From NCBI GenBank assembly GCA_026393585.1, contig JAPKZV010000119.1, positions 1-33,506 on the forward strand: a stretch of DNA of 33,506 nt, in the 5' to 3' direction. The DNA is from Actinomycetota bacterium. Its GTDB lineage: Bacteria; Actinomycetota; Acidimicrobiia; Acidimicrobiales; Ilumatobacteraceae. This document shows positions 1,317 through 33,174 of the stretch, in pieces; the first letter of the stretch is position 1; each line of letters opens with the position of its first letter. The position numbers were made by a program, and so were the translations under genes. The notes beneath the pieces were generated by a model. The model was not told the origin of the DNA. It searched no databases and saw only the letters and a program-made list of their open reading frames with translations.

Positions 1317-1337
1317 ACCGTAATAGCCCACTACGGT
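1317..1337. promoter_or_regulatory. Symmetric divergent promoter pair (two TACGGT -10 boxes)
   Basis: ACCGTA at 1317-1322 and TACGGT at 1332-1337 are exact inverted copies 9 bp apart. Read outward, each is a TAnnnT -10 box: 10 nt before the CoA-transferase GTG and 7 nt before the cyclase ATG. The same symmetry could also form an operator. No convincing -35 elements are visible. Confidence 0.5.
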
Positions 1338-1344
1338 CTAGGGA

Positions 1345-2352
1345 ATGGTCAAGAGCACATTGCCCCAATATTCAGAATTGCCGTTGCGCGGAGGGTTGCC
1401 CAGTTCATGGGATGTCTGGACGTCTCCAGGTGCGCGGTACTTTGGCTGCCTCAACTTGCTGACACCTGAACGAGTGGCCGCAGCAGCACAACTGGTGCAA
1501 CGCGGCGCAGTGTTTGCAATGAACTGGAACATGCGCGAGCCAAACCCGCCTCTCTTTGGGCGTCAAGGCTTTGAACATGAAGTCACAGGCGATGACCGCG
1601 CCACAAGCCATGACGATGTGTTGCACGGTTGGAATACTCAGTCGTCGAGCCAGTGGGATGGCTTTCGACATATTCGCAACTTTGCAGCCCAAGCCGATGA
1701 AGAAGGTACGGGTCACTACGGCGGAGTTCCCGATGAAGAGCACGGCATGCATCACTGGGCACAGCGCGGCATTGCAGGGCGTGCGGTGTTGGCCGATGTC
1801 GGAAGATGGCGCATCAAGGTAGGTAGGCCGTTGCAGTACGACATTGCCGACCCCATTGAACCGCACGAACTTTTGGAATGTTTAGAAGACCAAGGAACTG
1901 AATTGCGCGAGGGCGATATTTTGCTCATGCGCACGGGCTGGATGCAGTGGTACATGCAGCAAAGTGAAGAAACGCGTGCGCGTCTTGCACAACCACGAGA
2001 CCTCGCAACACCAGGTTTGCGTTCAGGTGAAGCAACAGCGGCAGCTTTGTGGAACATGCATATTGCTGCGCTTGGTGCCGACAACCCTGCGGTTGAAGCA
2101 TGGCCACCCGGAGCGAACAGCACTCCAGAACATCAAGCAGAAGTGCGTGCCGACAAACGCCGCATGCATGAAATTTTTACGCACACACTCATATTGCCCA
2201 TGTTGGGTTTGCCACTTGGTGAAATGTTCGACCTCGATGCATTGGCCGACGACTGCGCACGCGATGGTCGTTATGAAGGTTTCTTTACTTCTGCACCGCT
2301 GAACTTGCCGAGTGGTGTTGCTTCGCCACCGAATGCCTTAGTTATTAAGTAA
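1345..2352 (+). CDS. Cyclase / kynurenine-formamidase-fold hydrolase (PF04199-like)
   Basis: A 335-aa protein of the metal-dependent cyclase family. It shows the bacterial long-variant signature: SSQWDGFRHI near residue 110 stands where shorter members have HxGTHxDxPxH, and GDILLMRTGWMQWY lies in the core. Characterised relatives hydrolyse amides or cyclise polyketides, but the substrate here is unknown. The start is ATG 1345 with TACGGT ending 7 nt upstream and no Shine-Dalgarno, which fits leaderless translation. It is divergent from the CoA-transferase and convergent with the M20 gene, whose 3' end overlaps it by 8 bp. These neighbours suggest carboxylic-acid or amide catabolism, by inference only. 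Confidence 0.8.
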   Translation: MVKSTLPQYSELPLRGGLPSSWDVWTSPGARYFGCLNLLTPERVAAAAQLVQRGAVFAMNWNMREPNPPLFGRQGFEHEVTGDDRATSHDDVLHGWNTQSSSQWDGFRHIRNFAAQADEEGTGHYGGVPDEEHGMHHWAQRGIAGRAVLADVGRWRIKVGRPLQYDIADPIEPHELLECLEDQGTELREGDILLMRTGWMQWYMQQSEETRARLAQPRDLATPGLRSGEATAAALWNMHIAALGADNPAVEAWPPGANSTPEHQAEVRADKRRMHEIFTHTLILPMLGLPLGEMFDLDALADDCARDGRYEGFFTSAPLNLPSGVASPPNALVIK

Positions 2353-3628
2353 GGCGCACGCCAAGATGGCGTAAGGCCATTGCTGAATAGAGTGACGCAC
2401 CCACTGCCATCGCGTCTTCATCGAAGACCACGTGGTTGGAGTGGTTTGGCGCGGCAGTAGCTGTGTTCTTATCGGGTGAAGTTCCACCGAGGAACATCAT
2501 TGCCCCAGGCAAGCGTTCAAGAACATAACTGAAATCTTCTGCTGCCATTACTGGGTTCGGCATTTGAATGACCTTCTGATCACCGAGAATTGCTGTTGCA
2601 ACATCGCTAGCAAAACCAGCAAATTGGTGGTTGTTTACCGTGACGGGGTAGCCGAGTTCAATATCGACCTCTGCAACTAAGCCATGTGCAGAAGCAATGC
2701 CGTTAGCTACTTGGTTGATATAACTATGCACATTGCTGCGTGTTTTTGCACTAACTGCACGCAGTGTTCCTTGAATTGAAGCTGTTTCAGGAATGACGTT
2801 GTATGCGGTGCCGGCTTGAATGGTGGTGACCGTCACGATGGCGGGGTCAAATGCATTAATGCGTCGTGTGACCATTGAGTGCAGTGCTTGAACAATTTCG
2901 CAAGCAACAGGAACAGGGTCGAGTGTGCGATGTGGCGCTGAAGCATGACCACCAGCTCCTGTGATGTTGATGGTGAGTTTGTCGCTCGACGCCATGAGCG
3001 AACCACCGCGAATACCTACCATGCCAACAGGAATCTCAGTGCCAATGTGCAATGCGAATGCACCTGTAATGGGCGAGGCACTTCCGTCTTTGTGCTTGGG
3101 CACGTCGAGGAGCCCTTCGTCGAGCATGAACTGCGCGCCGGCGTAACCTTCCTCGCCAGGTTGAAACATAAAGAGCACGCGACCAGAAATGTTGTTCTTG
3201 CGTTGAGACAACATGTGCGCTGTTTGCACGAGCATTGCGGTGTGTGTGTCGTGCCCACATGCGTGCATGATGTTTTCATTCACCGATGAAAAGTCGAGCC
3301 CCGTATCTTCAGGCATTGGCAGAGCATCCATGTCGCCACGGAGCAGCACCGTTGGCCCAGGTTTGTCGCCAGTGAGCAAAGCGGCAATACCACTTGTTGT
3401 TTTGTGCAACGTGATGTCGAGTGGGAGGCCATCGAGCGCGGTGAGCACTTGTTCACGCGTGATGGGAAGATTGTTTCCAATTTCAGGATGGCGGTGCAAC
3501 GAACGGCGCAAGGCAACAGCATCTTTTTGAAAGCTGAGTGCTTGAGCCCGGAGTTCAGAACTTTGGCCGTGTTCTTCGGCGAGGTCTGCTGCTGGTCGAC
3601 CAGTGAATAAAGCGCTTGACATCTCCAT
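2345..3628 (-). CDS. M20 family amidohydrolase (N-acyl-amino-acid / hippurate hydrolase type)
   Basis: From ATG 3628 this is a 427-aa M20D-type metallopeptidase that would release carboxylates from N-acyl amino acids. Metal-site motifs are visible: LRGDMDALP (about residues 96-104), HACGHDTHT (122-130), FQPGEEGYAGA, and the C-terminal AAEDFSYVL. No signal peptide is seen, so it is probably cytoplasmic. The ORF track starts 31 codons earlier, but that extension is unlike the family, overlaps the NUDIX gene and reads like non-coding sequence. ATG 3622 is an alternative. A TAGTGT hexamer ends 8 nt before ATG 3628. Confidence 0.88.
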   Translation of the reverse strand: MEMSSALFTGRPAADLAEEHGQSSELRAQALSFQKDAVALRRSLHRHPEIGNNLPITREQVLTALDGLPLDITLHKTTSGIAALLTGDKPGPTVLLRGDMDALPMPEDTGLDFSSVNENIMHACGHDTHTAMLVQTAHMLSQRKNNISGRVLFMFQPGEEGYAGAQFMLDEGLLDVPKHKDGSASPITGAFALHIGTEIPVGMVGIRGGSLMASSDKLTINITGAGGHASAPHRTLDPVPVACEIVQALHSMVTRRINAFDPAIVTVTTIQAGTAYNVIPETASIQGTLRAVSAKTRSNVHSYINQVANGIASAHGLVAEVDIELGYPVTVNNHQFAGFASDVATAILGDQKVIQMPNPVMAAEDFSYVLERLPGAMMFLGGTSPDKNTATAAPNHSNHVVFDEDAMAVGASLYSAMALRHLGVRLT

Positions 3629-3636
3629 ATGGTGGC

Positions 3637-3642
3637 ACACTA
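3637..3642 (-). promoter_or_regulatory. Candidate -10 box of the M20 gene
   Basis: On the minus strand, TAGTGT ends 8 nt before ATG 3628. This would give a leader of one or two bases. It sits in the 19-bp gap between two divergent genes. Confidence 0.4.
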
Positions 3643-3647
3643 AAGGT

Positions 3648-4157
3648 GTGCAAAACGCAAGTGAAGAACTGGTGGACATTGTTGATGAAGATGACAAAGT
3701 TTTGTACCAATGCACCCGCAAAGAGATGCGAGCACAGGTGCTTCGTCATCGGGCCGTCTTTATTGCCGTTGTGAATTCTGCAGGCGAGTTGCTCATCCAT
3801 CAGCGCAGTGCCACAAAGGACTTATGGCCCAGCTGGTGGGATATTGCTGTTGGTGGCGTGGTGTCGGCTGGTGAGGCTTATGACTCGGCCGCACTTCGTG
3901 AGCTTGATGAAGAGGTGGGCATTGCCGGTGTGCCGCTTGTTGAACTGGGAGTGGGCACTTACAGCGACGTAGAGGTGAGCCTTATAGGCAAGTGCTTTAT
4001 GGCGATATACGACGGGCCGCTGATTCTGCGCGACGGTGAAGTGGTCGCCACCGAGTGGGTGTCGAAAAATGACTTGATACAGCGCCTGGCAGAGCGCGAT
4101 TTTCTTCCCGACAGCAAGGCACTCGTGTTGCCGGCTTTACAAAAAATCTTGAAATAA
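3648..4157 (+). CDS. NUDIX hydrolase (YfcD / IPP-isomerase-like subgroup)
   Basis: A complete Nudix box GX5EX7REUXEEXGU is present, from the G of GVVSAGE through REL, EE and GI. It lies in a protein of about 169 aa. The N-terminal pattern ELVDIVDEDDKV, then RHRAVFIAVVN, then WDIAVGG resembles the YfcD/IDI-like Nudix group rather than MutT. The substrate is probably a diphosphate but is not identifiable. I place the start at GTG 3648, since related proteins begin just before the DIVDEDD block. The ORF-track GTG at 3603 would overlap the M20 start. GTG 3672 is another option. The gene is divergent from M20. Confidence 0.82.
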   Translation: MQNASEELVDIVDEDDKVLYQCTRKEMRAQVLRHRAVFIAVVNSAGELLIHQRSATKDLWPSWWDIAVGGVVSAGEAYDSAALRELDEEVGIAGVPLVELGVGTYSDVEVSLIGKCFMAIYDGPLILRDGEVVATEWVSKNDLIQRLAERDFLPDSKALVLPALQKILK

Positions 4158-4216
4158 GTGACTCCGCGAGGATCTCGCTACCCTCTGTAAGAGATTTACG
4201 CTGAAAGTAGGCACTC
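4158..4216 (+). promoter_or_regulatory. Short spacer with candidate -10 boxes before the thiamine-binding-like gene
   Basis: The spacer holds a small inverted repeat (GCGAG-gat-CTCGC), a TACCCT hexamer at about 4169 and a TACGCT hexamer at about 4197. Either could be a -10 box. A weak Shine-Dalgarno-like AGTAGG precedes ATG 4217. I do not see a THI-box riboswitch. Confidence 0.3.
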
Positions 4217-4450
4217 ATGCTGGAAATTGAGTTCACCATTGAGCCTTTCATTGAAGGCGCCCCGGGAAAGCACGTCACCGCTGCCGTTGCTGCTGTAGAA
4301 AAATTCGGCGTAGTTGTTGACTTTGGACCCTTTGGTTCCACTTTTATCGCGGCTGAAAGCAATGTTGCTGCAATTGTGGGCGCACTTCTTGAAGCTGCTT
4401 ACGGCAACGGTGCAACTCATGTGAGTGTTCATGTTGGGCCACAAGAATAA
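4217..4450 (+). CDS. MTH1187/YkoF-like small thiamine-binding-family protein
   Basis: A 77-aa protein with the alpha/beta pattern of the thiamine-binding family once called DUF77. It has a first strand LEIEFTIEPF, a conserved glycine-rich turn EGAPGKHV, a helix VTAAVAAVEKFG, a VDFGPFGSTF strand and the terminal strand HVSVHVGP. Relatives bind thiamine or its hydroxymethylpyrimidine moiety, and the physiological role is uncertain. Its stop codon overlaps the start of the HTH gene by one base (TAATG), so the two are translationally coupled. No secretion signal is present. Confidence 0.65.
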   Translation: MLEIEFTIEPFIEGAPGKHVTAAVAAVEKFGVVVDFGPFGSTFIAAESNVAAIVGALLEAAYGNGATHVSVHVGPQE

Positions 4451-4674
4451 TGTCCGTGCCCGATCACCCATTAGTAAACGCGGTGCAACCACTGCTCGAT
4501 GCAATTGGTGCGAGCCTTGTTGCGCCAACTGGCATTACGCCAAGCGATATCCCCATTGAGTGGGACGGAAATGTCATTGCTGGAGTACGGCTTCGCGCAG
4601 TGGAAGACGTCGCCGACGTGATGGGCGTTTCGCGAATTACGGTGTACAACTACTTAAACGCAATGCATCGTTAA
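4450..4674 (+). CDS. Mini helix-turn-helix protein, possibly an internally deleted regulator
   Basis: A 74-aa protein whose C-terminus, [20 protein letters not shown], is a clear helix-turn-helix. The N-terminal half ([16 protein letters not shown], then [16 protein letters not shown]) resembles, from memory, longer actinobacterial proteins. In those, about 45-50 residues separate the EWDG block from the HTH, whereas here they are joined directly. It starts at ATG 4450, overlapping the stop of the preceding gene, and ends in a TTAA shared with coaA on the opposite strand. It may regulate the thiamine-binding-like gene with which it is coupled, by inference from position. Confidence 0.7.
4671..4674. 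other. Shared palindromic stop TTAA of two convergent genes
   Basis: TAA on the plus strand (4672-4674) ends the HTH gene, and TAA on the minus strand (4673-4671) ends coaA. The two genes overlap by exactly these four bases. Confidence 0.9.
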
Positions 4675-5594: not shown

Positions 5595-5597
5595 TTT

Positions 5598-6578: not shown

Positions 6579-6699
6579 AACGCCCCAAGGCTATTGGGAA
6601 TCACGGGGGGTATTGCATTTTTTCTATTGCCGTGTTCAGATACCAACTTCACACATAGGGGGTGTGGCTACACAAGACACATTCAGGGGAAGGACAGCC
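6579..6699. promoter_or_regulatory. Divergent intergenic region map / Tad operon
   Basis: The map side has a -10-like TAGCCT at 6588-6593, 9 nt from its ATG. The Tad side has an AT-rich run TTGCATTTTTTCTATTG near 6611 and small inverted repeats of the CACAC/GTGTG type around 6650-6675. These could bind a regulator, but I cannot name one or place the transcription start. Confidence 0.4.
6685..6694 (+). promoter_or_regulatory. Strong ribosome binding site deciding the GTG start of the Tad operon
   Basis: AGGGGAAGGA ends 5 nt before GTG 6700. It selects that start over the ORF-track start at 6571, which would run antisense into map. Confidence 0.65.
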
Positions 6700-10433: not shown

Positions 10434-10443
10434 CCAAAAAAAT

Positions 10444-10450
10444 AAAGGAG
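10444..10450 (+). promoter_or_regulatory. Strong Shine-Dalgarno before the pilin gene
   Basis: AAAGGAG sits 6 nt before ATG 10457 in an A-rich gap. It is the best ribosome binding site inside the Tad operon; most other genes there rely on overlap coupling. High translation would suit the major pilin. Confidence 0.8.
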
Positions 10451-10456
10451 AAAACA

Positions 10457-10642
10457 ATGAAGGAATATTTCAACTACTACTGGATTCGCTTTACTGCATC
10501 GCGAGAAGCAGACACAGAGGCGGGCGAAGTGAGTGCAACAACCGTAGTAATGGCCGCAGCTCTGATTGCTCTAGCAATTGCTGTGGGGGCAACTATTACT
10601 TCACGTGTAAAAGATAAAGCCAACACTCTTAATCTCGGCTAA
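10457..10642 (+). CDS. Small Flp-type pilin candidate
   Basis: A 61-aa protein in the position of flp. A hydrophilic leader of about 26 residues ends in EAG, followed by EVSATTVVMAAALIALAIAVG, a single hydrophobic helix, and a short basic tail. A prepilin peptidase could cut after the Gly of EAG|EVSA. Classical Flp pilins have Glu-Tyr at +5/+6, which is missing here, so the cleavage site is inferred. The strong Shine-Dalgarno argues for a major structural subunit. By position it corresponds to mycobacterial Rv3656c. Confidence 0.78.
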   Translation: MKEYFNYYWIRFTASREADTEAGEVSATTVVMAAALIALAIAVGATITSRVKDKANTLNLG

Positions 10643-14486: not shown

Positions 14487-14492
14487 AAGTTA
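14487..14492 (-). promoter_or_regulatory. Candidate leaderless -10 box of radA
   Basis: TAACTT ends 6 nt before ATG 14480, inside the 23-bp gap behind the lipoprotein gene. Confidence 0.5.
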
Positions 14493-14503: not shown

Positions 14504-15307
14504 TTAATTGCGCGAGCGCGAGGTGCGCTTGCGTTGCCGGTCGTATTGGCGTTTATAGAGGAGTGCGCCGAGTACTGCCATGAGACCAAGCCACGCAATG
14601 AGGAGGACGAGGCCGATTTTGGAGGCGATACCGCCCAGAGTTCCGACCACGTCGACGTTTTCAGTGCTGGTGGCGAGGTCGACAGGGGTGCCGTCGGTAG
14701 CCACGCGCCAGGAGAGCTTGCCATTTTCGGGAATAGCAGTGGACGATTTCAATTCCCCGGGCAGGGAGGCGACGAACTCAATAGTGAGCGCCTTGCCGAG
14801 GTCGAGGTTTTGCGACTTGACGGTGCTTTCATATGGGGTAGCGCCGAGAGCCGCGATGAGTTGGTCGTCGGCAAAGGCTTGCAGCCCGCCTGTTACTTCT
14901 AGTCGGCCCGACAAGTTCCACGATGAGTCGCGGGCTTTTCCGCCACGACGCAAAATGACTTCACGAAAGGGACCACGGTTGCCATTGAGTTGGGCAAGCA
15001 CTGCAGTTGCTTCAGATTCATTGGCGAAGTCGCGAACGAGAACTAATTGCTTGCCACCAGACGCGGTATCAACAGGCTCGGTGAGCTTCCAACCATTCTT
15101 CTTTAAGTCGCTGAAGTCGAGATTGTCGGCAATGTCGGGAGAGCGTTGAACAATTTCCTTATCAACATCAATGGTGACAGTGACGTTTCCACTGCCATCG
15201 GGGTTGACCACCATCGACACTTGCGTGTCGACACGACATGAAGCAAGAAGAACTATTGCACAACACAGCGCAATGAAACGCTTAGCTGTTGACGTAGCTA
15301 TTTTCAC
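14504..15307 (-). CDS. LppM-like lipoprotein (DUF3153-type)
   Basis: A 267-aa exported lipoprotein. A basic start, a hydrophobic core (FIALCCAIVLLASC) and the lipobox LASC (Cys about 24) mark a type II signal peptide. The mature part opens RVDTQVSMVVNPDGSGNVTV, the usual start of LppM-like proteins. It ends with a transmembrane helix (IGLVLLIAWLGLMAVLGALL, about 233-252) and a very basic tail. Lipid anchor plus C-terminal helix would tether it twice. It starts at GTG overlapping the clpC stop (GTGA), so it is translated with clpC. Mycobacterial LppM is linked to surface glycolipids; the role here is unknown. Confidence 0.82.
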   Translation of the reverse strand: MKIATSTAKRFIALCCAIVLLASCRVDTQVSMVVNPDGSGNVTVTIDVDKEIVQRSPDIADNLDFSDLKKNGWKLTEPVDTASGGKQLVLVRDFANESEATAVLAQLNGNRGPFREVILRRGGKARDSSWNLSGRLEVTGGLQAFADDQLIAALGATPYESTVKSQNLDLGKALTIEFVASLPGELKSSTAIPENGKLSWRVATDGTPVDLATSTENVDVVGTLGGIASKIGLVLLIAWLGLMAVLGALLYKRQYDRQRKRTSRSRN

Positions 15308-17856
15308 TCAGGAAGTGCGGTGCCGGAGTCGCCTGCGCCCGCAAGTTCTACAGCTACAGGAGGTTCAAAACCTTCTACAGCAGTAAAGGTCATGCGCTTC
15401 TCGCCAGGCTTGTCGGGGTCGTCTTCTGTGTCGACCACAATGATGACGCCAGCAGCGAACTCTTTGTACAAGATCTTCTCTGATAGTGGATCTTCAATGA
15501 GACGCTGAATGGCACGACGCAATGGACGAGCACCAAGTTGTGGGTCGTAACCGCGTTCTGCCAACAATTCTTTGGCAGACAACTTGAGTTCAATACCAAG
15601 ACCTTGGCTCTCGAGTTGCCCAGTGAGACGCTTGATCATGAGATCAACCATTTGCATCACTTCGTCTTTAGCCAATTCATGGAAGACAATGACTTCGTCG
15701 ATGCGGTTGAGGAATTCAGGGCGGAAGTGTTGCTTCAACGCTTCGTTGACTTTTTCCTTCATGCGCTCGTATGAAACAGCTTCGTCACTTGTGGTGAAGC
15801 CAACGGCTCCCTTGCGCAAATCTTGTGTTCCCAAGTTTGAGGTCATGATGAGCACGGTGTTGCGGAAGTCAACCGAACGGCCTTGGCTGTCGGTGAGACG
15901 ACCCTCTTCAAGAATTTGCAAGAGAGTGTTGAACACGTCGGGGTGTGCTTTTTCAATTTCGTCGAAGAGCACAACACTAAATGGTTTGCGACGCACAGCT
16001 TCGGTGAGTTGGCCGCCTTCTTCGTAGCCCACGTATCCAGGAGGTGAACCAACAAGACGGCTGACGGTGTGCTTTTCCATGTACTCCGACATGTCGAGAG
16101 CAATGAGTGCACTGTCGTCGCCGAACAAGAATTCGGTGAGTGTCTTTGCGAGTTCAGTTTTACCTACACCAGTTGGTCCGAGGAAAATGAACGAGCCACT
16201 TGGACGCTTAGGATCTTTCAACCCAGCGCGTGTACGACGAATGCTTTGGCTGACGGCGCGAATTGCATTTTCTTGACCAATGATGCGCTTGTGAAGTTCG
16301 GCTTCCATGTTGAGCAACTTGGCAGTTTCTGCTTCGGTGAGTTTGTACACCGGAATGCCTGTCCAGAGGCTCAAAACCTCAGCAATAGCTTCTTCGTTGA
16401 CTTCGTCGAAAAGATCAACGCCAGACGCCTTAATGTCGGCTTCTTTGAGTGCACGCTCTTCAAGTAGTGAACGCTCTTGGTCGCGCAAGCGGCCTGCTTC
16501 TTCAAAACGTTGTTCTTCAACTGCTTTGCGCTTTGATTCTTGCACTTCAGCAATTTTGTTCTCGAGCTCTTTGAGATCGGGTGGTGTTTGCATGCGCTTA
16601 ATACGCAAACGGCTACCAGCTTCGTCAATAAGGTCGATTGCTTTGTCGGGAAGGAAACGATCGGCAATGTAACGATCGGCAAGGTTTGCCGCAGCAACGA
16701 GTGCTTGATCGGTGATGGTGACGCGGTGATGCGTTTCGTACTTGTCGCGGATGCCCTTCAAAATTTCAATGGTGTGCGCAACAGATGGCTCGTCAACCTT
16801 TACTGGCTGAAAGCGACGCTCAAGTGCGGCATCTTTTTCAAAATGCTTGCGGTATTCCTCAGTAGTGGTGGCACCAATGGTTTGGAGTTCACCACGAGCA
16901 AGCATTGGCTTCAAGATAGAAGCAGCATCGATTGCGCCTTCTGCTGCGCCTGCACCGACAAGTGTGTGAATTTCGTCGATGAACAAAATGATGTCGCCAC
17001 GAGTTTTGATTTCTTTCAAAACTTTTTTCAGACGCTCTTCAAAGTCACCGCGGTAACGGCTACCTGCAACAAGTGCACCGAGGTCGAGTGTGTAGAGCTG
17101 CTTGTTCTTCAAAGTTTCAGGAATGTCGTTGCTCACAATTTTCTGAGCGAGGCCTTCAATAATTGCGGTCTTACCAACACCAGGCTCACCGATGAGCACG
17201 GGGTTGTTTTTGGTACGACGTGAAAGAATTTGCATGACGCGCTCGAGTTCGCGTGAACGACCAATAACGGGGTCGAGCTTTTTGTCGCGAGCAAGTTGCG
17301 TGAGGTTGCGGCCGAATTGGTCGAGAATTTGGCTGCCGCCTTTGTCGCCACTTTCTTCTTTGCCACTTCCTGCAGCTGCACCGGCTGGGGTGCCTTCGCC
17401 CTTAGAGCCGGCTGGGCCTTGGTAGCCACTGAGCAACTGAATGACTTGTTGACGCACGCGACCAAGGTCGGCGCCGAGCTTGACCAAAACTTGAGCGGCA
17501 ACGCCTTCGCCTTCGCGAATGAGGCCGAGCAAGATGTGCTCGGTGCCGATGTAGTTGTGGCCGAGTTGGAGAGCTTCACGTAATGAGAGTTCAAGAACTT
17601 TTTTGGCACGAGGGGTGAAGGGAATGTGACCTGAAGGTGACGAACCACCCTGACCAATGATGTCTTCTACCTGGGCGCGTACCGCTTCAAGAGAGATACT
17701 GAGCGACTCGAGTGCTTTTGCGGCAACGCCTTCACCCTCGTGAATGAGCCCAAGCAAGATGTGCTCGGTGCCAATATAAGAATGGTTGAGGAGGCGCGCC
17801 TCTTCTTGCGCTAACACCACAACTCGTCGCGCCCTGTCGGTAAAGCGTTCGAACAA
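15304..17856 (-). CDS. clpC: ATP-dependent Clp protease ATPase subunit ClpC
   Basis: An 850-aa double-AAA+ unfoldase that feeds proteins to ClpP. It has two N-domain repeats (about 1-70 and 78-145), AAA1 with Walker A GEPGVGKT (223-230) and Walker [15 protein letters not shown]-type coiled segment ([20 protein letters not shown]) precedes AAA2 with [25 protein letters not shown] and the C-terminal D2-small domain. Length and order equal mycobacterial ClpC1. The start is TTG, since the universal [11 protein letters not shown] begins there, preceded by AAGGGCGG as Shine-Dalgarno. Downstream lie the coupled lipoprotein gene and radA. Confidence 0.97.
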
Positions 17857-17950
17857 TTTGACCGCCCTTATCTGGTGCCCTTCGGCACTGAAATACGTTG
17901 CCCAAGTGTACCTGCACCGTTAGGGCAGGGCGCATTGTGGGCCGTAACCT
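17857..17950. promoter_or_regulatory. Divergent intergenic region clpC / polyprenyl synthase
   Basis: On the clpC side AAGGGCGG lies 5 nt before the TTG start. On the other side TAACCT (17945-17950) touches ATG 17951 and lies exactly 6 nt before the in-frame GTG 17957. No ClgR-type operator or -35 box could be identified by eye. Confidence 0.4.
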
Positions 17951-19871: not shown

Positions 19872-19877
19872 ACGCTA
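19872..19877 (-). promoter_or_regulatory. Candidate leaderless -10 box of the renalase-like gene
   Basis: TAGCGT ends 7 nt before ATG 19864, in the 24-bp gap behind the pseudophosphatase gene. Confidence 0.45.
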
Positions 19878-20398: not shown

Positions 20399-21291
20399 TA
20401 CTGCAATCTTAATCGCTGATTGCTTCTTCGCACCTGTTTCCCGCCACCAATTTCACATCCAGGGTGAATTCCTCGGGCAACTTCAAGTACACGCTCAACA
20501 GTTGCTGCATCGGGTGGGTAGGGGTTGGCGAGCCACATGCGAATTGCACGGCGAGCAAGTGGAAGCGGGGCAGCGGCAAGTGCCGGTGCGTCGAGTACGT
20601 CAATAACCGAGGCGAGATCTTGGAGGAATTTTTCGTCGTCGCCAATGAGTTGCGATTCACGAGCAATGAGATGTGCGACATCACGTTGTGCGATGGAGTT
20701 GAGAAGTGGAAGAAGCTCGTGGCGTACGCGATTGCGCTGAAAGCGAGGATCACTATTGCTGGAGTCTTCAACAAGGTCAATATCAAATGCGGAGCAGAGC
20801 GCTTCGGTTTCATGTCGGCGCAAGTGAAGAATCGGCTTGCTGTGCGTATAACGCATTCCCGAAAGGCCTTCGGTTCCGGCCCCACGCATGAGGTTGATGA
20901 GCACGGTTTCTGCTTGGTCGTCGGCTGTATGGCCAGTGAGTACACCGGGAGGCAAGAGTGCAAAACGAGCTTGGCGGGCTCGTGCTTCTAAGTTGGGGCC
21001 ATCGGCTAGGTCGGCGCGTAAAGAAATAGCCATGGCACCAAAACGTGTGGCGATATTTTCTACAACGGAAAATTCATTCTGAGAACCAACTCGTAAACCA
21101 TGGTCAACGTGATACGCGGTGACCTGGTGTCCGGTTGCTACCGCAAGAATGAGAAGTGCTACGGAATCGGCACCGCCAGAAACCGCACATGCCACACCGT
21201 GAGGTGCTTCGGTAGATAGAGGAAAGTGTGTGCGAGTAAGAAGTTCTTGTACCAGTTCATGATGCTGAAGTGCTTGCGCATCAAGAATCAT
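20398..21291 (-). CDS. tilS: tRNA(Ile)-lysidine synthase
   Basis: A 297-aa TilS of the short actinobacterial form. It attaches lysine to C34 of the CAU-anticodon isoleucine tRNA so that AUA is read. The PP-loop SGGADSVALL (about 38-47) is intact. AYHVDHGLR, GHTADDQAETVLINLMRGAG and the RNRVRHELLPLL block follow as in the family. The C-terminal part is short, lacking the extra domains of the E. coli enzyme. Its stop overlaps the next gene (TAATG). The upstream 45-aa gene ends 17 bp before it and may share its transcript. Confidence 0.94.
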   Translation of the reverse strand: MILDAQALQHHELVQELLTRTHFPLSTEAPHGVACAVSGGADSVALLILAVATGHQVTAYHVDHGLRVGSQNEFSVVENIATRFGAMAISLRADLADGPNLEARARQARFALLPPGVLTGHTADDQAETVLINLMRGAGTEGLSGMRYTHSKPILHLRRHETEALCSAFDIDLVEDSSNSDPRFQRNRVRHELLPLLNSIAQRDVAHLIARESQLIGDDEKFLQDLASVIDVLDAPALAAAPLPLARRAIRMWLANPYPPDAATVERVLEVARGIHPGCEIGGGKQVRRSNQRLRLQ

Positions 21292-21452: not shown

Positions 21453-21458
21453 ATCGTA
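21453..21458 (-). promoter_or_regulatory. Candidate leaderless -10 box of the 45-aa gene
   Basis: TACGAT ends 6 nt before ATG 21446, in the 30-bp gap after the marR stop. Confidence 0.45.
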
Positions 21459-24279: not shown

Positions 24280-24285
24280 AAAGTA

Positions 24286-24291
24286 ACCCTA
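24286..24291 (-). promoter_or_regulatory. Candidate leaderless -10 box of the AhpD-like gene
   Basis: TAGGGT ends 6 nt before ATG 24279, inside a 43-bp gap. Confidence 0.5.
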
Positions 24292-25255: not shown

Positions 25256-25256
25256 T

Positions 25257-25940: not shown

Positions 25941-25946
25941 TACTTC

Positions 25947-25956
25947 ACTGTAATGT
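25947..25956. promoter_or_regulatory. Overlapping bidirectional leaderless promoter
   Basis: TAATGT (25951-25956, plus) ends 6 nt before the SDR ATG at 25963. TACAGT (25952-25947, minus) ends 6 nt before the AIM24 ATG at 25940. The two hexamers share two bases, and the whole gap between starts is 22 bp. Confidence 0.6.
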
Positions 25957-25962
25957 TTCACC

Positions 25963-26700: not shown

Positions 26701-26702
26701 TT

Positions 26703-28451
26703 TTAGCTACGTACGAGTCGACCAGGGCGAGCACCTGTGTCGGCATCGTTCAATCGAGTAACAACACCATTCACCAACGTTGCTGCGTAACCAGTTGATG
26801 GTTGCAAAATACGCGAACCCCCGGCAGGAAGGTCTTTGCGAACAAACGGAGCTTGAATAGTGAGCTTGTCGAGGTTGATGACATTTACGTCGGCACGCTT
26901 GCCCACTTCCAAGGAACCACGGTCGCTGAGGCCATAGAGGTCGGCATTGTTCTTCGTGAGTTTGCGCACCGTTGACTCGAGTGGCAAGCGCTCACCACGG
27001 CTGCGGTCGCGTACCCAATGGGTGAGGTGGAACGTAGGCATGGAGCAGTCGCAAATGAAACTCACATGAGCACCTGCATCGGAAAGGCCCGTGATGGTGT
27101 CGGGGTGCAGCAACATTTCACGACTTGCGTCGAGGTCTCCCTTGGCAAAGTTTGAACCAAATATTGCGTAGAAAGCTGTTCCATCGTTTTCTAACAACAA
27201 GTCGTACATGAGCGACTCTGGAGAAACGCCGAGCACCTTTGCACGACCTACTACTGATTCTTCGCGCAATGGTTCGTAGTTAATAGGAAATGTCAATGGG
27301 AACGTGGCATTTAGAGCACGTGCATATAAGCCCACTACTGCCTGCATGGAGCCCGCATTTTCCGACGGCACACTGCGGTCGTTGATGATTGCTTCTTTCA
27401 TTGCAGGGTCGCGCATTGCCTTCACACGCTCGGGCAATGGCAAGTGTGCAACTTCACGCAAGTACGTGCCTTTACGCATAAACATGTGATACGTACCCAA
27501 GCTGGTCATGACCGTTACTGCACGCGGTGCAACTTGTGGCCTCAGCTGTGCGCCGTTTGCGTTTTCAGCCGACACGGCATTGAGCACATCGCGCCAGTGG
27601 TCGATATCTTCTGCAATTTGCACCGTAGTGAATGTGATGGGGCGGCCGCTCTTGCGTGAGACATCGGCAAGCATCATTACTTCTTCTACTGGCTTTGCTT
27701 TTTCGCCACCGAGTGCTTCAAGTGCGCCAACGGTGCCGGCGGGAATTGCTTCGAAAACACCCTTGCCCATTGCGTTGGCAATAGCAACGAGTTCTTCTTC
27801 TGCAGCAAAAGTTCCTGGTACTGGTGAACCCGATAGCGAGCGGTGACCAATAGTACGTGAAGTGGAAAAGCCAAGAGCACCTGCGTCCATGGCTTCTTTG
27901 GTGAGTTGAGCCATCTCGGCAATTTCTGCTGGTGTTGCATCTTCATTATCGGTACCGCGTTCACCCATGACATAAAAACGCAGCGCACCGTGTGCAATTT
28001 GTGTTCCTACGTCAATGCTGAACTTGCGTGTATCGAGAAAATCTAAGTACTCGGGAAATGACTCCCATGCTCCCCAGGGCATTCCTTCGACAAGCGCACT
28101 GCCAGGAATATCTTCAACACCTTCCATGATGTCGATGAGTGGTGCTTCTGAGCCAGGGCGCACCGGAGCAAACCCCACTCCGCAGTTGCCCATCACCAAA
28201 GTGGTGACACCATTTGTTGCCGATGGTTCAAGATCTTCATCCCAGGTCACTTGACCGTCGTAGTGCGTGTGCACATCGACCCAGCCTGGCGTCACAATAT
28301 GGCCAGAGGCATTAATAACCTGTTTGGCTTCTTCAGAAATACTCGGAGCAATGTGGGTAATGACCCCCTCATTGATTGCGATATCGGCAACGAAGGCGTC
28401 TGCCCCAGTGCCATCAACGATTGTTCCCCCACGAATCACGATGTCATGCAT
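26703..28451 (-). CDS. N-acyl-D-amino-acid deacylase-type amidohydrolase
   Basis: A 582-aa amidohydrolase-superfamily enzyme. The N-terminus MHDIVIRGGTIVDGTGAD is the usual beta-sandwich start. WVDVHTHYDGQVTWD gives the metal HxH, and GNCGVGFAPVRPG is a hallmark of D-aminoacylase-like members. A His-Asp segment GLSDAGAHVSF near the C-terminal third would hold the catalytic Asp. Members remove acyl groups from D-amino acids or hydrolyse related amides. It may belong with the acyl-CoA ligase cluster upstream. TAATCT ends 6 nt before the ATG, inside a 17-bp gap, so it can be transcribed independently. Confidence 0.88.
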   Translation of the reverse strand: MHDIVIRGGTIVDGTGADAFVADIAINEGVITHIAPSISEEAKQVINASGHIVTPGWVDVHTHYDGQVTWDEDLEPSATNGVTTLVMGNCGVGFAPVRPGSEAPLIDIMEGVEDIPGSALVEGMPWGAWESFPEYLDFLDTRKFSIDVGTQIAHGALRFYVMGERGTDNEDATPAEIAEMAQLTKEAMDAGALGFSTSRTIGHRSLSGSPVPGTFAAEEELVAIANAMGKGVFEAIPAGTVGALEALGGEKAKPVEEVMMLADVSRKSGRPITFTTVQIAEDIDHWRDVLNAVSAENANGAQLRPQVAPRAVTVMTSLGTYHMFMRKGTYLREVAHLPLPERVKAMRDPAMKEAIINDRSVPSENAGSMQAVVGLYARALNATFPLTFPINYEPLREESVVGRAKVLGVSPESLMYDLLLENDGTAFYAIFGSNFAKGDLDASREMLLHPDTITGLSDAGAHVSFICDCSMPTFHLTHWVRDRSRGERLPLESTVRKLTKNNADLYGLSDRGSLEVGKRADVNVINLDKLTIQAPFVRKDLPAGGSRILQPSTGYAATLVNGVVTRLNDADTGARPGRLVRS

Positions 28452-28457
28452 TCGTTC

Positions 28458-28463
28458 AGATTA
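28458..28463 (-). promoter_or_regulatory. Candidate leaderless -10 box of the amidohydrolase
   Basis: TAATCT ends 6 nt before ATG 28451, in a 17-bp gap after the preceding stop. Any -35 would lie within the upstream gene. Confidence 0.5.
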
Positions 28464-28468
28464 CCAAC

Positions 28469-29515
28469 TTATTGTTGAACCACATTCGCCCCAGCCACAA
28501 GTGGAAGGTCAAGAAATGTGCGTACCCCTGCCGGGGCATTGACAACTGCAGGAATTGCATGAAAAGCGCGCATCGCCGTTCCCACTAACCCGTTGGTGGT
28601 CCACTTGTCAGCTTCGAAATGTAAACGCGGGGTTCCCTCAATAGTGCAGACCCACGCAGGGCTTTGCCACTGCGGCGCCACACTTTTGTGCACCTTATAT
28701 ATGGCTTCTAAACGAATGACATCTCGCCCATAGGCGACACCACACCATTCCCAACGCTGGGCAGCAACGGTTCCTTGTGGAACGAGGCCAGCGGCAATGG
28801 TGAGATCTTCTTTTGCTAATTCAATTTCTGACTGAACGGTGAGTTCATCGAGTTCGAGGCCTAAGCCATCAGCCATCATCAAGACGCTTTCTTCAAAAAG
28901 TCCACTGAGCCATTTGCGATACCGAGCAGTGTGTTCCTCATATGCATCGGGCGTGAGAGAAAAACCCATGACATCAAAAATAATTTGCGGTGATGCATAG
29001 AAAGAAAAGTCGGAATGTTCGCGCACCAAGACAGACTTAATGCTTTGCGAATGCGATGTGAAAATAAGTGGAACAAGTTCGGCCATGAAGCCAGGATTCA
29101 CCCCAGTGCCATGCAGCGATACTCCTCCAACGGCACATGCATCTTCTAGCTCACGCAGAACATCGGCGCCATACGCCTTGGGGTAGACGTAGCCAACAGT
29201 GGTAATTACATTTTTTCCACTACGCAACAGTGCACAAATATCTTTGGTGTCTTTCGTTGGGTCTTCGTTTACTTGTGCACCAGAAAGAGGCATGTGTAAA
29301 ACAACATCTGCTTTCAATTTTAAAATTTCGCTGGTGTCACTTGTTGCTTTCACGCCACAAGCAGGTAGCCCAACAAAGTCTGCAGCATCGACACCTACTT
29401 TGCTGGGGGACGAAACGTAACACCCCACCAGTTCGTAGTTGCTGTGTTCAAGTACCGATCGCAAAGCGGCTTGTCCGACATTTCCCGTTCCCCATTGAAT
29501 GACTGAGATGCTCAT
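28469..29515 (-). CDS. Dihydrodipicolinate-reductase-like NAD(P)-dependent oxidoreductase
   Basis: A 348-aa protein. The N-terminus SVIQWGTGNVGQAALRSVL is a Rossmann motif of the DapB-N-like group, which includes 2,4-diaminopentanoate dehydrogenase. LKADVVLHMPLSGAQ, KNVITTVGYVYP and GTGVNPGFMAELVPL follow as in those proteins. It is not lysine-pathway DapB, being too long and lacking the DapB lysine-substrate signature. In Actinobacteria such genes often sit in lipid or terpenoid catabolic clusters, which fits the acyl-CoA ligase nearby. TATCTT ends 6 nt before its ATG. Confidence 0.83.
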   Translation of the reverse strand: MSISVIQWGTGNVGQAALRSVLEHSNYELVGCYVSSPSKVGVDAADFVGLPACGVKATSDTSEILKLKADVVLHMPLSGAQVNEDPTKDTKDICALLRSGKNVITTVGYVYPKAYGADVLRELEDACAVGGVSLHGTGVNPGFMAELVPLIFTSHSQSIKSVLVREHSDFSFYASPQIIFDVMGFSLTPDAYEEHTARYRKWLSGLFEESVLMMADGLGLELDELTVQSEIELAKEDLTIAAGLVPQGTVAAQRWEWCGVAYGRDVIRLEAIYKVHKSVAPQWQSPAWVCTIEGTPRLHFEADKWTTNGLVGTAMRAFHAIPAVVNAPAGVRTFLDLPLVAGANVVQQ

Positions 29516-29521
29516 ACCCCA

Positions 29522-29527
29522 AAGATA
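29522..29527 (-). promoter_or_regulatory. Candidate leaderless -10 box of the DapB-like gene
   Basis: TATCTT ends 6 nt before ATG 29515, in the 30-bp gap after the aldose-epimerase-like stop. Confidence 0.5.
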
Positions 29528-29545
29528 CTGCAGTGAGAAATGGGC

Positions 29546-30349
29546 TCAGATAGACGGGCCGAGGCGAATTATAAATTCAGCGCGAACAGCTTGGTTTGGT
29601 TGAACAACGTCGAGAAAGTTGTCGGAGATGAGGTTGAAGGCATTCGGTGGCCCGGTTTGGGGCTCAATGCAGGTGGTGTGCGCGAGTTCGTCGTAGACCA
29701 CCCAATACTCGGCGGTACTCGTGAGAGAGATAGCAACATCATTGATAACGAGTGTGGGTTCAGCAATGACGTCTGTAAAACAGTCATCCCAAGTGCCATC
29801 TGTGGGCGTAACCATGCGGCCCGTCACTATGTCATCAACATCTTTTTCAAACATAGAACCAAAAGCAAAATGCGTAGAGTCTGGTTTCTTCCAGCATGGG
29901 TGCCATCCGAGTTGATACGGAAATGCTTCAAGGGAATGAATTGTTAAAACACATTTCACTTCCTCAGGTGTGACATGAACGCTGTGTTCACAAGCACCAG
30001 CAAAGGGCCACAGTGCATGGGAGCCATCATCGAGTGCGATGCTCATGGTCACATGAGTATCGCTGTGTTCTATGATCTCCCATGGCCTGGTAACAACAGT
30101 TCCATGAATGGCGTGTTGACCGTAGTTCTGCAACGTGGAGTAACGATTCTCGTTCCAAGAAAAAGTGCCATGAGCAAGTCGCCCCGCAAAAGGAGCCATT
30201 GGGTAGCAACCCCAAGTGAGGGGAGTATTCGCAGGTTCTTTGTGTGTTCGACCAATGAGAAGTTCCTGGTTGTTATAAAAAATTTGTGCGATGCGCCCGC
30301 CATCTGTGGGCGCAACCTCAGCACATATTTTGCCGGCCCGAAGAAGCAC
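29546..30349 (-). CDS. Aldose-1-epimerase-like (galactose mutarotase fold) protein
   Basis: I place the start at GTG 30349, overlapping the acyl-CoA ligase stop (TAGTG). This gives 267 aa instead of the 305 of the track, whose first 38 codons run inside the ligase gene. The fold is shown by EVAPTDGGRIAQIFYNNQEL, YPMAPFAGRLAHG (the substrate Arg), YGQHAIHGTV (the conserved His), YQLGWHPCWKK (a second His) and EPQTGPPNAFN (the Glu of the catalytic site). It may interconvert sugar anomers. Its position, coupled to an acyl-CoA ligase, is unusual for a sugar enzyme. Confidence 0.85.
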   Translation of the reverse strand: MLLRAGKICAEVAPTDGGRIAQIFYNNQELLIGRTHKEPANTPLTWGCYPMAPFAGRLAHGTFSWNENRYSTLQNYGQHAIHGTVVTRPWEIIEHSDTHVTMSIALDDGSHALWPFAGACEHSVHVTPEEVKCVLTIHSLEAFPYQLGWHPCWKKPDSTHFAFGSMFEKDVDDIVTGRMVTPTDGTWDDCFTDVIAEPTLVINDVAISLTSTAEYWVVYDELAHTTCIEPQTGPPNAFNLISDNFLDVVQPNQAVRAEFIIRLGPSI

Positions 30350-31884
30350 TAGTTCACTTTGCGTTGCAGGTTTGCCCAATACGGCTCTCGCAGTTTGAAC
30401 TTCTGCAGTTTGCCGGTTGCCGTACGGGCAAGTTCTGTACGGAACTCCACACGCTTGGGGCACTTGTACCCAGCGAGTTTAGTTTTCACGTAGGCAATGA
30501 GCGCATCTTCCGTCAGCGAAGAGTTGGGCGCCTTCACAACAAGTGCCATTACTAACTCGCCCCATTTTTCATCGGGCACGCCAATGACCGCTACTTCGGC
30601 AACTTCGGGGTGTGAGAACACAGCATCTTCTACTTCAATAGAGCTCACGTTTTCTCCACCAGAAATGATGACGTCTTTTTTACGATCGGAAATGGTGAGA
30701 TATGCACTCTCGTTCATTGTGCCGCCATCACCTGTGTGAAACCATCCGTCAACAATTGCTTTGCTCGTCTCTTCAGGCTGCTCCCAATAGCCAGCCATCA
30801 CAATGCTGCTGCGTGCAAGAACTTCACCTTCATCATCAAGTCGCAGCTCTACACCTAATGCAGGTGCACCAGCTGCCCCCAAGTTGACAGCGCGTTCATG
30901 TGGTGTGAGCACATCCCACTCACTACGACCGCGATTCATCGTGAGGAGAGGTGCAGTTTCGGTGAGCCCATAAATTTGTATGAACTCCCACCCGAGTTCA
31001 GTTTCAATACGTTCAATGGTGCGTGTTGGAGGTGGGGCGCCGGCCACAACAATACGTACGCGCCCGCGACCTGGAATTTCCCCTGGCCATGTTGCTGCTG
31101 CATCGAGAATCATGTTTGCTACTGCAGGTGCACCACACAACATGGTGATGCCGTATTGGTCGATGCGCCTCAGAATTTCTGCGCCATCTACTTTGCGCAA
31201 AATAACGTGCTCGCCACCCATTGCAGTGACCGCATAAACCATGCCCCAGCCATTGCAGTGAAACTGCGGAAGTGTGTGCAAGTAAATGTCGCGATCATTC
31301 ACACCAAGTTGCCAACCAAATGTTGCGGAATTGACCCACAAGTTGCGATGCGTGAGTTGAACACCCTTCGGGCGCGCGGTGGTGCCGCTGGTGTAGTTCA
31401 CCGTTGCCGTGGCATCTTCGTCGGGTACCCAAGTTTTTGGTTCAACACCATATTTATACAAGATGCTGTCTGACTCTTCGCCAATCACAAAGCGGTGCTT
31501 GGCGGTCACCGACTTCAATGATTCATCGAGCTCGGGGTCAACAATCAAAACATCGGCACCACTGTGCTCCACGATGTACTGCACTTCTTCGGCCACTAAG
31601 CGAAAGTTCACTGGTACAAGCACCCGTCCGAAACCACTCACGCCAAAAAACGAGGTATATAAACGTGCTGAGTTGTGGCTCACCATGGCCACACGAGCAC
31701 CCTGCGGAATACCTAACGCGTCGAGCCCGGCCGCTTGTGCGCGAGCACGCTCTGCGACTTCTTTGTACGTCAGAGAGCCCCAAGAAGTAGCTGGTTGATC
31801 GGGTTCATCGGTAATTGCTGTGCGGTTTCCGTATACAAGCTCTGCACGGCGTAGATGATCGACAATCGTGAGTGGGACTTTCAT
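30349..31884 (-). CDS. Acyl-CoA ligase (fatty-acid-CoA ligase, FadD-like)
   Basis: From ATG 31884 this is a 511-aa member of the ANL adenylate-forming superfamily, activating a carboxylate to its CoA thioester via acyl-AMP. The P-loop YTSGTTARPKGVQLTH, the A5 motif YGLTETAP, GWFHTGDGG and DRKKDVIISGGENVSSIEVE are present. The final A10 lysine is in RTATGKLQKFKLR. The size and the ISGGEN form are typical of medium- to long-chain or aromatic acid ligases. The track's 38 extra N-terminal residues overlap the TetR gene and are rejected. TACACT ends 6 nt before the ATG. Confidence 0.93.
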   Translation of the reverse strand: MKVPLTIVDHLRRAELVYGNRTAITDEPDQPATSWGSLTYKEVAERARAQAAGLDALGIPQGARVAMVSHNSARLYTSFFGVSGFGRVLVPVNFRLVAEEVQYIVEHSGADVLIVDPELDESLKSVTAKHRFVIGEESDSILYKYGVEPKTWVPDEDATATVNYTSGTTARPKGVQLTHRNLWVNSATFGWQLGVNDRDIYLHTLPQFHCNGWGMVYAVTAMGGEHVILRKVDGAEILRRIDQYGITMLCGAPAVANMILDAAATWPGEIPGRGRVRIVVAGAPPPTRTIERIETELGWEFIQIYGLTETAPLLTMNRGRSEWDVLTPHERAVNLGAAGAPALGVELRLDDEGEVLARSSIVMAGYWEQPEETSKAIVDGWFHTGDGGTMNESAYLTISDRKKDVIISGGENVSSIEVEDAVFSHPEVAEVAVIGVPDEKWGELVMALVVKAPNSSLTEDALIAYVKTKLAGYKCPKRVEFRTELARTATGKLQKFKLREPYWANLQRKVN

Positions 31885-31890
31885 AGAGAA

Positions 31891-31896
31891 AGTGTA
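31891..31896 (-). promoter_or_regulatory. Candidate leaderless -10 box of the acyl-CoA ligase
   Basis: TACACT ends 6 nt before ATG 31884, in the 28-bp gap after the TetR stop. It decides the start 38 codons inside the track ORF. Confidence 0.55.
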
Positions 31897-31912
31897 GGCA
31901 TATAGAAGGTGT

Positions 31913-32527
31913 CTATTTTTCGCCGAAGAGCAGGAAGTCTGCTGCTTCAACAAAAGTATCAACCCAGTTGAATTCCCGTGTGGCGGGGGTGAGCTCAACT
32001 ATTGCGTAAGAGGTAATGGTAGCGATATACCAAGCTGCCAAATTCTCTATATTGAGGTCCTCACGAATCCATCCCTTACTCTGCGCGATGCGCAATGGTT
32101 TGGCGAGTTCAATAGTGGCCTCAACAATGCGGTCGCTCACTGCCGCAGTAAGGGAAGGTCGGTTGTAAGTGGAACCCAAGACATTCACGCGATCGGCGCG
32201 GCGACGTGTGCCATCGGGCCCAAAGAAGGAGGGGAGAGATTGCCTCAACAATGCGCGGAACTCTTCTTGAGTTGTGCATTTATTTACTTCGTCTGAAAAT
32301 GCATTGGCATTAATAGTGAACTCACGCGCAAACCGTGATGCTTGCGCTGCCTCAATGAGACCTTCGCGATTCTGAAAGAAGTGGTAGATAGAAGTAACTG
32401 CCACATGAGAAGCTGTTGCAATTTCAGCAACATGAACGCCGCTTTCACCAGCCTCATCTATTGCCTCAACAGTGAGTCGAAGAATTTCATCTCGTGTCGA
32501 TAAGCCAGAAGCGTGTTTGATAGCCAC
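31913..32527 (-). CDS. TetR family transcriptional regulator (first)
   Basis: A 204-aa regulator. The N-terminal HTH region is TRDEILRLTVEAIDEAGESG, then VHVAEIATASHVAVTSIYHF, with FQNREGLIEAAQASRF following; this is the standard TetR pattern. The C-terminal ligand domain is variable. The start is GTG 32527 with TAAGAT ending exactly 6 nt before it, so a leaderless transcript is likely. It lies just upstream of the acyl-CoA ligase on the same strand and may control that catabolic group, perhaps with an acyl-CoA as ligand. That function is inference. Confidence 0.88.
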   Translation of the reverse strand: MAIKHASGLSTRDEILRLTVEAIDEAGESGVHVAEIATASHVAVTSIYHFFQNREGLIEAAQASRFAREFTINANAFSDEVNKCTTQEEFRALLRQSLPSFFGPDGTRRRADRVNVLGSTYNRPSLTAAVSDRIVEATIELAKPLRIAQSKGWIREDLNIENLAAWYIATITSYAIVELTPATREFNWVDTFVEAADFLLFGEK

Positions 32528-32533
32528 AGAAAG

Positions 32534-32539
32534 ATCTTA
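32534..32539 (-). promoter_or_regulatory. Candidate leaderless -10 box of the first TetR gene
   Basis: TAAGAT ends 6 nt before GTG 32527, in the 32-bp gap behind the second TetR gene. Confidence 0.5.
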
Positions 32540-32559
32540 CGACGCGGTGCTATCAAATC

Positions 32560-33138
32560 TCATTGTGGGGGGTATTTCGCTAGTAGCGACAGGATGTGAC
32601 GCCACAGTTTCATGACTGGCTGAATATCTGTCATCTCGGTCATTTCAAGCATGGGCGCAAATGCACCTGCCGCAAGGCCAATTGAGATGGCGATGGTTGC
32701 GGCCTCTCGTGCAATCTTCGGGTCAATATTTTCAATTTCAATGAAACGCTTGGTGAGATTGTCGAGGATGATTTTGTTGTAGAACAAGTGCTCTACTTCG
32801 ACGCCCTCCAAGTGGAGCCAAAGCAGCAGTCGAATCACGCAAATCAGTTTGGGGTCTTCAAAACTTAATGCTGCAGTTCCGGGTTTTGCTTGAAGTGCCA
32901 ACTCAGCGATTTCGGCGATTTGCTGTTTGACGACGGCAATCACCAGGTCGTTTTTTGAACCGAACCAAGTGTGAACGAAACCGGCGTTAACATCGGCCAG
33001 CGTGGCGATCTCTCTCACGCCCACCTCTGAAATAGGGCGATCCTGGGTGAGTTGGTAAGCAGCGTCAATTAGGCGGCGTTCACCCTCGGCCCGAGAAATT
33101 GGCGAACGGCGCTTTTTCGGGGGAGTATCGGCTGCCAT
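32560..33138 (-). CDS. TetR family transcriptional regulator (second)
   Basis: From ATG 33138 this is a 192-aa TetR protein. The track start is 31 codons earlier and gives a non-family leader. A basic N-terminus (PPKKRRSPISRAEGERRL) precedes the HTH: LIDAAYQLTQDRPISEVGVR, EIATLADVNAGFVHTWFGSK. The ligand domain has no recognisable signature. It may form a regulatory pair with the next TetR gene, 32 bp downstream. TATTGT ends 7 nt before the ATG, and a -35-like TTGCTC lies 17 bp further up. Confidence 0.87.
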   Translation of the reverse strand: MAADTPPKKRRSPISRAEGERRLIDAAYQLTQDRPISEVGVREIATLADVNAGFVHTWFGSKNDLVIAVVKQQIAEIAELALQAKPGTAALSFEDPKLICVIRLLLWLHLEGVEVEHLFYNKIILDNLTKRFIEIENIDPKIAREAATIAISIGLAAGAFAPMLEMTEMTDIQPVMKLWRHILSLLAKYPPQ

Positions 33139-33145
33139 GGTGTAG

Positions 33146-33174
33146 ACAATACGCAGTTCAGTGATCCCGAGCAA
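33146..33174 (-). promoter_or_regulatory. Promoter of the second TetR gene
   Basis: TTGCTC (33174-33169), a 17-bp spacer and TATTGT (33151-33146) make the best sigma-70-type promoter in the window. It ends 7 nt before ATG 33138. Confidence 0.55.

What the first reader, a model, noticed from the sequence alone, without database searches (positions are those of the whole stretch)
1317..33151. Window-wide leaderless promoter signature: TAnnnT 6-8 nt before the start codon
At 14 starts a TAnnnT hexamer ends 6, 7 or 8 nt before the chosen start codon, usually with no Shine-Dalgarno. They are: cyclase (TACGGT, 7), M20 (TAGTGT, 8), radA (TAACTT, 6), polyprenyl synthase (TAACCT, 6 to GTG 17957), renalase-like (TAGCGT, 7), 45-aa gene (TACGAT, 6), AhpD-like (TAGGGT, 6), AIM24 (TACAGT, 6), SDR (TAATGT, 6), amidohydrolase (TAATCT, 6), DapB-like (TATCTT, 6), acyl-CoA ligase (TACACT, 6), TetR1 (TAAGAT, 6), TetR2 (TATTGT, 7). 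With about 23 candidate operon-head starts, chance would give only one or two. Leaderless transcription is known in Actinobacteria, but the density here suggests it is the default mode, with Shine-Dalgarno use kept for clpC and the Tad operon.
Basis: partly seen in the sequence, partly recalled or inferred. Interest (0 to 1): 0.72.

Follow-up and report, generated by a model that had tools for sequence, protein, structure and literature searches.

The report
Leaderless-gene promoters in an uncultured actinobacterium
Many genes in this uncultured actinobacterium carry a bare TAnnnT promoter box exactly 6-8 bases before their start codon, so their messages should begin at the start codon itself; this is a known actinobacterial habit, here used at unusually high density but not as the only mode.

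Summary
All 14 TAnnnT hexamers are at the stated distances, and 10 of those 14 starts were also chosen by a gene caller that ignored upstream sequence. In 451 kb of the same genome such upstream-blind starts give a sharp peak at gap 6, with 40 of 116 divergent heads at gaps 6-8 against 2 at control distances. Across the whole genome TAnnnT-N6-ATG exceeds TAnnnT-N12-ATG 334 to 149. These sites have no -35 signal, no Shine-Dalgarno, and a pyrimidine just before the start codon; the hexamer is conserved in radA orthologs across the order. The best reading is SigA-type leaderless transcription as in Mycobacterium. "Default mode" is overstated: about 40-50% of divergent heads and 22-26% of all genes carry it, and Shine-Dalgarno is used widely, including ribosomal operons. 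What stands out is degree: this genus has the highest excess density of 120 actinobacterial genomes compared. The mechanism is already described (Zheng 2011, Cortes 2013, Shell 2015). No RNA data exist here.

The parts
1332..1337 (+). TACGGT, gap 7 before cyclase ATG 1345 (start choice uncertain)
3637..3642 (-). TAGTGT, gap 8 before M20 peptidase ATG 3628
14487..14492 (-). TAACTT, gap 6 before radA ATG 14480; hexamer conserved in orthologs across the order
17945..17950 (+). TAACCT, gap 6 before polyprenyl synthase GTG 17957 (start choice uncertain)
19872..19877 (-). TAGCGT, gap 7 before FAD-dependent (renalase-like) gene ATG 19864
20406..20411 (-).
21453..21458 (-). TACGAT, gap 6 before 45-aa gene ATG 21446
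24286..24291 (-). TAGGGT, gap 6 before AhpD/CMD-like gene ATG 24279
25947..25952 (-). TACAGT, gap 6 before AIM24 ATG 25940; overlaps the SDR hexamer by 2 bp
25951..25956 (+). TAATGT, gap 6 before SDR ATG 25963; TAAnnT at gap 6 kept in 12 genomes of the genus (own included)
28458..28463 (-). TAATCT, gap 6 before amidohydrolase ATG 28451
29522..29527 (-). TATCTT, gap 6 before DapB-like gene ATG 29515
31891..31896 (-). TACACT, gap 6 before acyl-CoA ligase ATG 31884
32534..32539 (-). TAAGAT, gap 6 before TetR1 GTG 32527
33146..33151 (-). TATTGT, gap 7 before TetR2 ATG 33138 (start choice uncertain)
10439..10456 (+). contrast: strong Shine-Dalgarno (AAAGGAGAAAACA) before the small Tad-locus gene ATG 10457

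Best explanation
TAnnnT is the -10 element of the housekeeping (SigA-type) promoter. RNA polymerase melts DNA at this element, with no -35 consensus needed, and starts RNA about 7 nt downstream, which at gap 6 is the first base of the ATG or GTG. The mRNA therefore has no 5' leader and the ribosome starts on the 5'-terminal RTG. About 40-50% of transcription-unit heads and about a quarter of all genes in this genome use it; operon-internal and ribosomal-protein genes use Shine-Dalgarno. The sequence signature is shown here; promoter activity, the transcript start and leaderless translation are inferred from mycobacteria.
For: Peak at exactly gap 6 with upstream-blind starts; TAnnnT is the most frequent of 64 XYnnnZ hexamers at gaps 6-8 of divergent heads (40/116; next 12). 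Abundant at divergent heads (43%), nearly absent at overlapping genes (4%). 160 aligned sites show TAnnnT and nothing at -35, matching Cortes 2013 (PMC3898074: TANNNT at 73% of primary TSSs, no conserved -35). Position -1 is a pyrimidine in 75% of gap-6 genes versus 57% otherwise, p=0.001, fitting a Y/R transcription start at the RTG; SD 4-mers in 3.7% versus 31%. TTG is rare in the leaderless class, 3/162 versus 17/287, p=0.056, in line with the RTG-only rule of Shell 2015 (PMC4633059). TAnnnT at gap 5-9 is kept in 22 of 30 radA loci, down to 52% protein identity, and in SDR of 12 genomes of the genus. Whole-genome excess of spacing 6 over spacing 12: 334 vs 149, z 8.4.
Against: No RNA 5'-end data. 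Gap 7-9 cases would leave 1-3 nt leaders or need shifted starts. My gene caller is simple, and the EM class is inflated: decoy internal ATG/GTG codons receive a mean 18% leaderless posterior, so I rely on exact-motif counts. The genome is an 83%-complete MAG.
Confidence: 0.92

Rival explanations
1. The hexamer is a translation signal (non-SD ribosome-binding or AT-rich unstructured leader) rather than a promoter.
For: It sits at an SD-like distance and most carriers lack SD.
Against: It is nearly absent in overlapping genes, which also need translation but not their own promoter (4%); only T, A and the last T are informative, a Pribnow pattern, with one sharp spacing; the pyrimidine at -1 fits a transcription start.
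Confidence: 0.04
2. Start-choice artefact: TAnnnT is common and starts were chosen to fit.
For: Four of the 14 window starts depend on choice.
Against: The peak persists with upstream-blind starts and in a start-free whole-genome pattern count with a frame-matched control spacing; 29 of 74 phylum-level genomes show no excess, so the count itself is not biased.
Confidence: 0.02
3. Leaderless transcription is the sole or default mode and SD is residual.
For: Window density 14 of about 23; the genus has the highest density in the sample.
Against: Half or more of heads and most internal genes lack the motif; a ribosomal cluster is SD-led; anti-SD kept in a same-genus 16S.
Confidence: 0.08

Closest known systems
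Actinobacterial leaderless genes with TAnnnT ('TA-led') signal, Zheng et al. 2011 (PMC3160421)
   Same: Same TAnnnT pattern about 10 bp upstream of the start in Actinobacteria, about 20% of genes per genome.
   Different: There in high-GC (>60%) genomes; here about 50% GC with the middle three positions still nearly free, and a density at the top of the actinobacterial sample.
Mycobacterium tuberculosis / smegmatis leaderless transcriptome (Cortes 2013 PMC3898074; Shell 2015 PMC4633059)
   Same: TANNNT, no -35 consensus, RTG starts, SD absent, growth genes depleted.
   Different: About one quarter of genes with a primary TSS there; about 40-50% of divergent heads here by sequence. No transcript data here.
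PafBC / RecA-independent DNA-damage promoters of Actinobacteria (PMC8223512, PMC11804915)
   Same: radA of order relatives has TGTC-N12-TAnnnT in front of a leaderless start; the spacing equals the RecA-NDp consensus as I recall it.
   Different: The window's own radA keeps only AACACCC and lacks TGTC.
Bidirectional bacterial promoters from overlapping symmetric -10 elements (PMC12825309, PMC10268837)
   Same: AIM24 and SDR -10 hexamers overlap on opposite strands.
   Different: Predicted starts 23 bp apart; no genome-wide excess of such short divergent spacings among 84 pairs.

Membership tests
Actinobacterial SigA-type leaderless promoters | TANNNT hexamer at a fixed 6-8 nt before the start codon, above background | tested here: met
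Actinobacterial SigA-type leaderless promoters | No -35 consensus | tested here: met
   information at -35 positions at most 0.03 bit in 160 sites
Actinobacterial SigA-type leaderless promoters | ATG or GTG start, TTG disfavoured | tested here: inconclusive
   TTG 3/162 vs 17/287, p=0.056; right direction, borderline
Actinobacterial SigA-type leaderless promoters | Shine-Dalgarno absent in these genes | tested here: met
   3.7% vs 31%
Actinobacterial SigA-type leaderless promoters | Depleted among ribosomal-protein genes | tested here: met
   one cluster only
Actinobacterial SigA-type leaderless promoters | 5' end of mRNA coincides with start codon | not testable with these tools
   no RNA data; -1 pyrimidine is indirect
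PafBC-dependent promoter (radA) | TGTC at 12 nt before TAnnnT | tested here: not met
   absent in the window copy; YGTC-N12-YAnnnT present in 11 of 30 radA loci, all outside the genus
Bidirectional promoter (AIM24/SDR) | Overlapping -10 elements on both strands driving both genes | tested here: inconclusive
   overlap shown and both hexamers kept in the near clade; activity not testable; no genome-wide excess of such spacings

The most novel reading that the evidence does not exclude
This genus is among the most leaderless-rich bacteria, with promoters reduced to TAnnnT and packed so tightly that a -10 can double as the upstream gene's stop codon (TAA/TAG+nnT, start 9 nt after the stop) or overlap a divergent gene's -10, so that many closely spaced same-strand genes are separate leaderless units rather than operons.
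Probability: 0.3. Interest if true: 0.55.

Novelty: new member of a known kind. Interest (0 to 1): 0.36.

Why it matters
It extends a mechanism mapped in mycobacteria and streptomycetes to an uncultured actinobacterial lineage of moderate GC, with a density at the top of 120 genomes. Practically, start-codon annotation here should use the TAnnnT-gap-6 rule, and operons should not be called from short same-strand gaps: about a third of genes 10-59 nt behind a same-strand neighbour carry their own putative promoter.

Tried and rejected
The whole-genome pattern with the tool's own reversed-pattern control showed no excess; that control is not composition- or frame-matched, so I used spacing 12 instead. 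EM posteriors were rejected as absolute fractions because decoys get 18% and because in 100-140 kb samples the motif drifts; exact counts were used instead. A peak of divergent start-to-start distances near 20 bp (shared bidirectional promoters) was sought and not found. 16S is absent from this MAG, so the anti-SD was read in relatives. The named-genome search returned only order-level relatives at best, so the taxon (probably Acidimicrobiia/Acidimicrobiales) is inferred.

Full report
What was checked. The window lies on contig C148 of an 83%-complete, 2.03-Mb MAG. Its radA is 88-100% identical to same-genus genomes and 50-63% identical to order-level ones; named Acidimicrobiales/Acidimicrobiaceae MAGs score 52-60%, so class Acidimicrobiia is a reasonable inference, not a test.

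Observation. All 14 TAnnnT hexamers are present at the stated distances. I wrote a gene caller that picks starts by coding score and start-codon type only; it independently picked 10 of the 14 starts. Cyclase, polyprenyl synthase, AIM24 and TetR2 rest on a start choice that the hexamer itself may have influenced. Background is 0.0096 per position, so chance gives about 0.7 of 23 starts.

Genome-wide test. In 451 kb with upstream-blind starts TAnnnT peaks at gap 6: 27 of 116 divergent heads at that single position, 3 at gap 7, 10 at gap 8, about 1 elsewhere. Of 64 patterns XYnnnZ it is the most frequent at gaps 6-8 of divergent heads (40; next 12). In 597 kb a three-class model (leaderless, SD, none) recovers TAnnnT with 60% at gap 6. 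By context with refined starts: 43% of divergent heads, 31% and 37% of same-strand genes 10-29 and 30-59 nt apart, 23% at 60-119 nt, 7% at 120 nt or more, 14% at 0-9 nt and 4% of overlapping genes. Across all genes 146 of 567 carry it, against 23 at a control distance. I take about 40-50% of heads and 22-26% of genes; the model's own 33% is inflated, as decoys show.

Anatomy. Aligned on the hexamer, 160 sites have T1, A2 and T6 and almost nothing else upstream: no -35 and no TGn extension. At gap 6 the base before the start codon is a pyrimidine in 75% versus 57% in other genes, p=0.001, as expected if transcription starts on the A/G of the start codon. SD 4-mers are in 3.7% of these genes versus 31% of the others. 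TTG starts are rarer (3/162 vs 17/287, p=0.056).

Shine-Dalgarno is alive. The ribosomal-protein cluster on C189 is SD-led throughout, the Tad small gene at 10457 has AAAGGAG, and a same-genus 16S ends in GGATCACCTCCTTTCT.

Comparative evidence. radA keeps TAnnnT at gap 5-9 in 22 of 30 loci (own included), down to 52% identity, while the flanks diverge. SDR keeps TAAnnT at gap 6 in 12 genomes of the genus (own included), among them the clade with 79% protein identity where the surroundings differ. Counting TAnnnT-N6-ATG minus TAnnnT-N12-ATG over whole genomes: this genome 185 extra sites (91/Mb); other genus members 65-124/Mb; family 33-84; order 10-70; wider phylum -18 to 64, with 29 of 74 showing none. 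The genus exceeds the family (p=9e-5; genomes are related, so this is descriptive). Exact-motif rates at divergent heads in sampled stretches agree in direction: 25% in a family member, 28% in a class member, 0% in three other actinobacteria; E. coli K-12 has 3/22 without a gap-6 peak (small samples, weaker gene calls at high GC).

Mechanism. Shown: motif, spacing, context, conservation. Inferred: SigA-type promoter, start of RNA on the RTG, leaderless translation. This matches M. tuberculosis, where TANNNT is found at 73% of primary TSSs without a -35 and about a quarter of genes with a primary TSS are leaderless (PMC3898074), and mycobacterial reporters, where a 5' ATG or GTG is necessary and sufficient (PMC4633059). 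Zheng et al. described the TAnnnT signal in Actinobacteria in 2011 (PMC3160421), and GeneMarkS-2 predicts up to 40% leaderless transcripts in 21.6% of bacterial species (cited in PMC9581028). So the kind is known; the density and the lineage are the new part.

Compactness. Same-strand gene spacing shows a bump at 9 nt (13 genes upstream-blind, all with TAA or TAG upstream stops, none TGA, p about 0.01). After TAA/TAG+nnT stops an ATG at +9 occurs in 7 of 59 versus 9 of 477 for other stops, p=0.0007 uncorrected. In those cases the stop codon is the TA of the next gene's -10. Part of this is expected geometry: an in-frame -10 of the form TAA/TAG must end the upstream frame. The comparison genomes were too small to test it. 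AIM24/SDR share 2 bp of opposing -10 hexamers with starts 23 bp apart.

Noticed in passing
own-genome loci, same-strand gene pairs 9 nt apart: Upstream stop codon TAA/TAG doubles as the TA of the next gene's -10 (TARnnT-N6-ATG): spacing bump at 9 nt, no TGA among 13, ATG at +9 after TAR+nnT stops 7/59 vs 9/477 (p=0.0007, uncorrected).
   Followed up: partly
window 25941-25962: 22-bp intergenic between divergent AIM24 and SDR with opposing -10 hexamers overlapping by 2 bp in a near-palindrome (CATTAC...GTAATG); possible bidirectional leaderless promoter. Both hexamers are kept in the near clade; AIM24 was not detected beside SDR in the 79%-identity clade.
   Followed up: partly
L049, L054, L059, L060, L062, L063, L064, L067-L070: radA upstream regions: radA of order relatives carries YGTC-N12-YAnnnT, often with a conserved CACCC, the spacing of the PafBC/RecA-independent DNA-damage promoter, ahead of a mostly leaderless start; changed to AACACCC in the window's genus.
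   Followed up: partly
L076:1120-2049 (+), own genome contig C29: A sigma-70-like gene (judged from its N-terminal sequence, not tested) has TGTC-N12-TAnnnT upstream, the only such site found in 597 kb; a possible PafBC-controlled leaderless sigma factor.
   Followed up: no
window 26703-33151, minus strand: A run of same-strand genes (TetR2, TetR1, acyl-CoA ligase, aldose-epimerase-like, DapB-like, amidohydrolase) in which all but the epimerase-like gene have their own TAnnnT within short gaps, so distance-based operon calling would probably mislead here.
   Followed up: no
window 15304-17856: ClpC starts at TTG 17856 (MFER N-terminus as in other ClpC proteins, from memory), not ATG, with only a weak purine-rich AAGGG upstream.
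   Followed up: no
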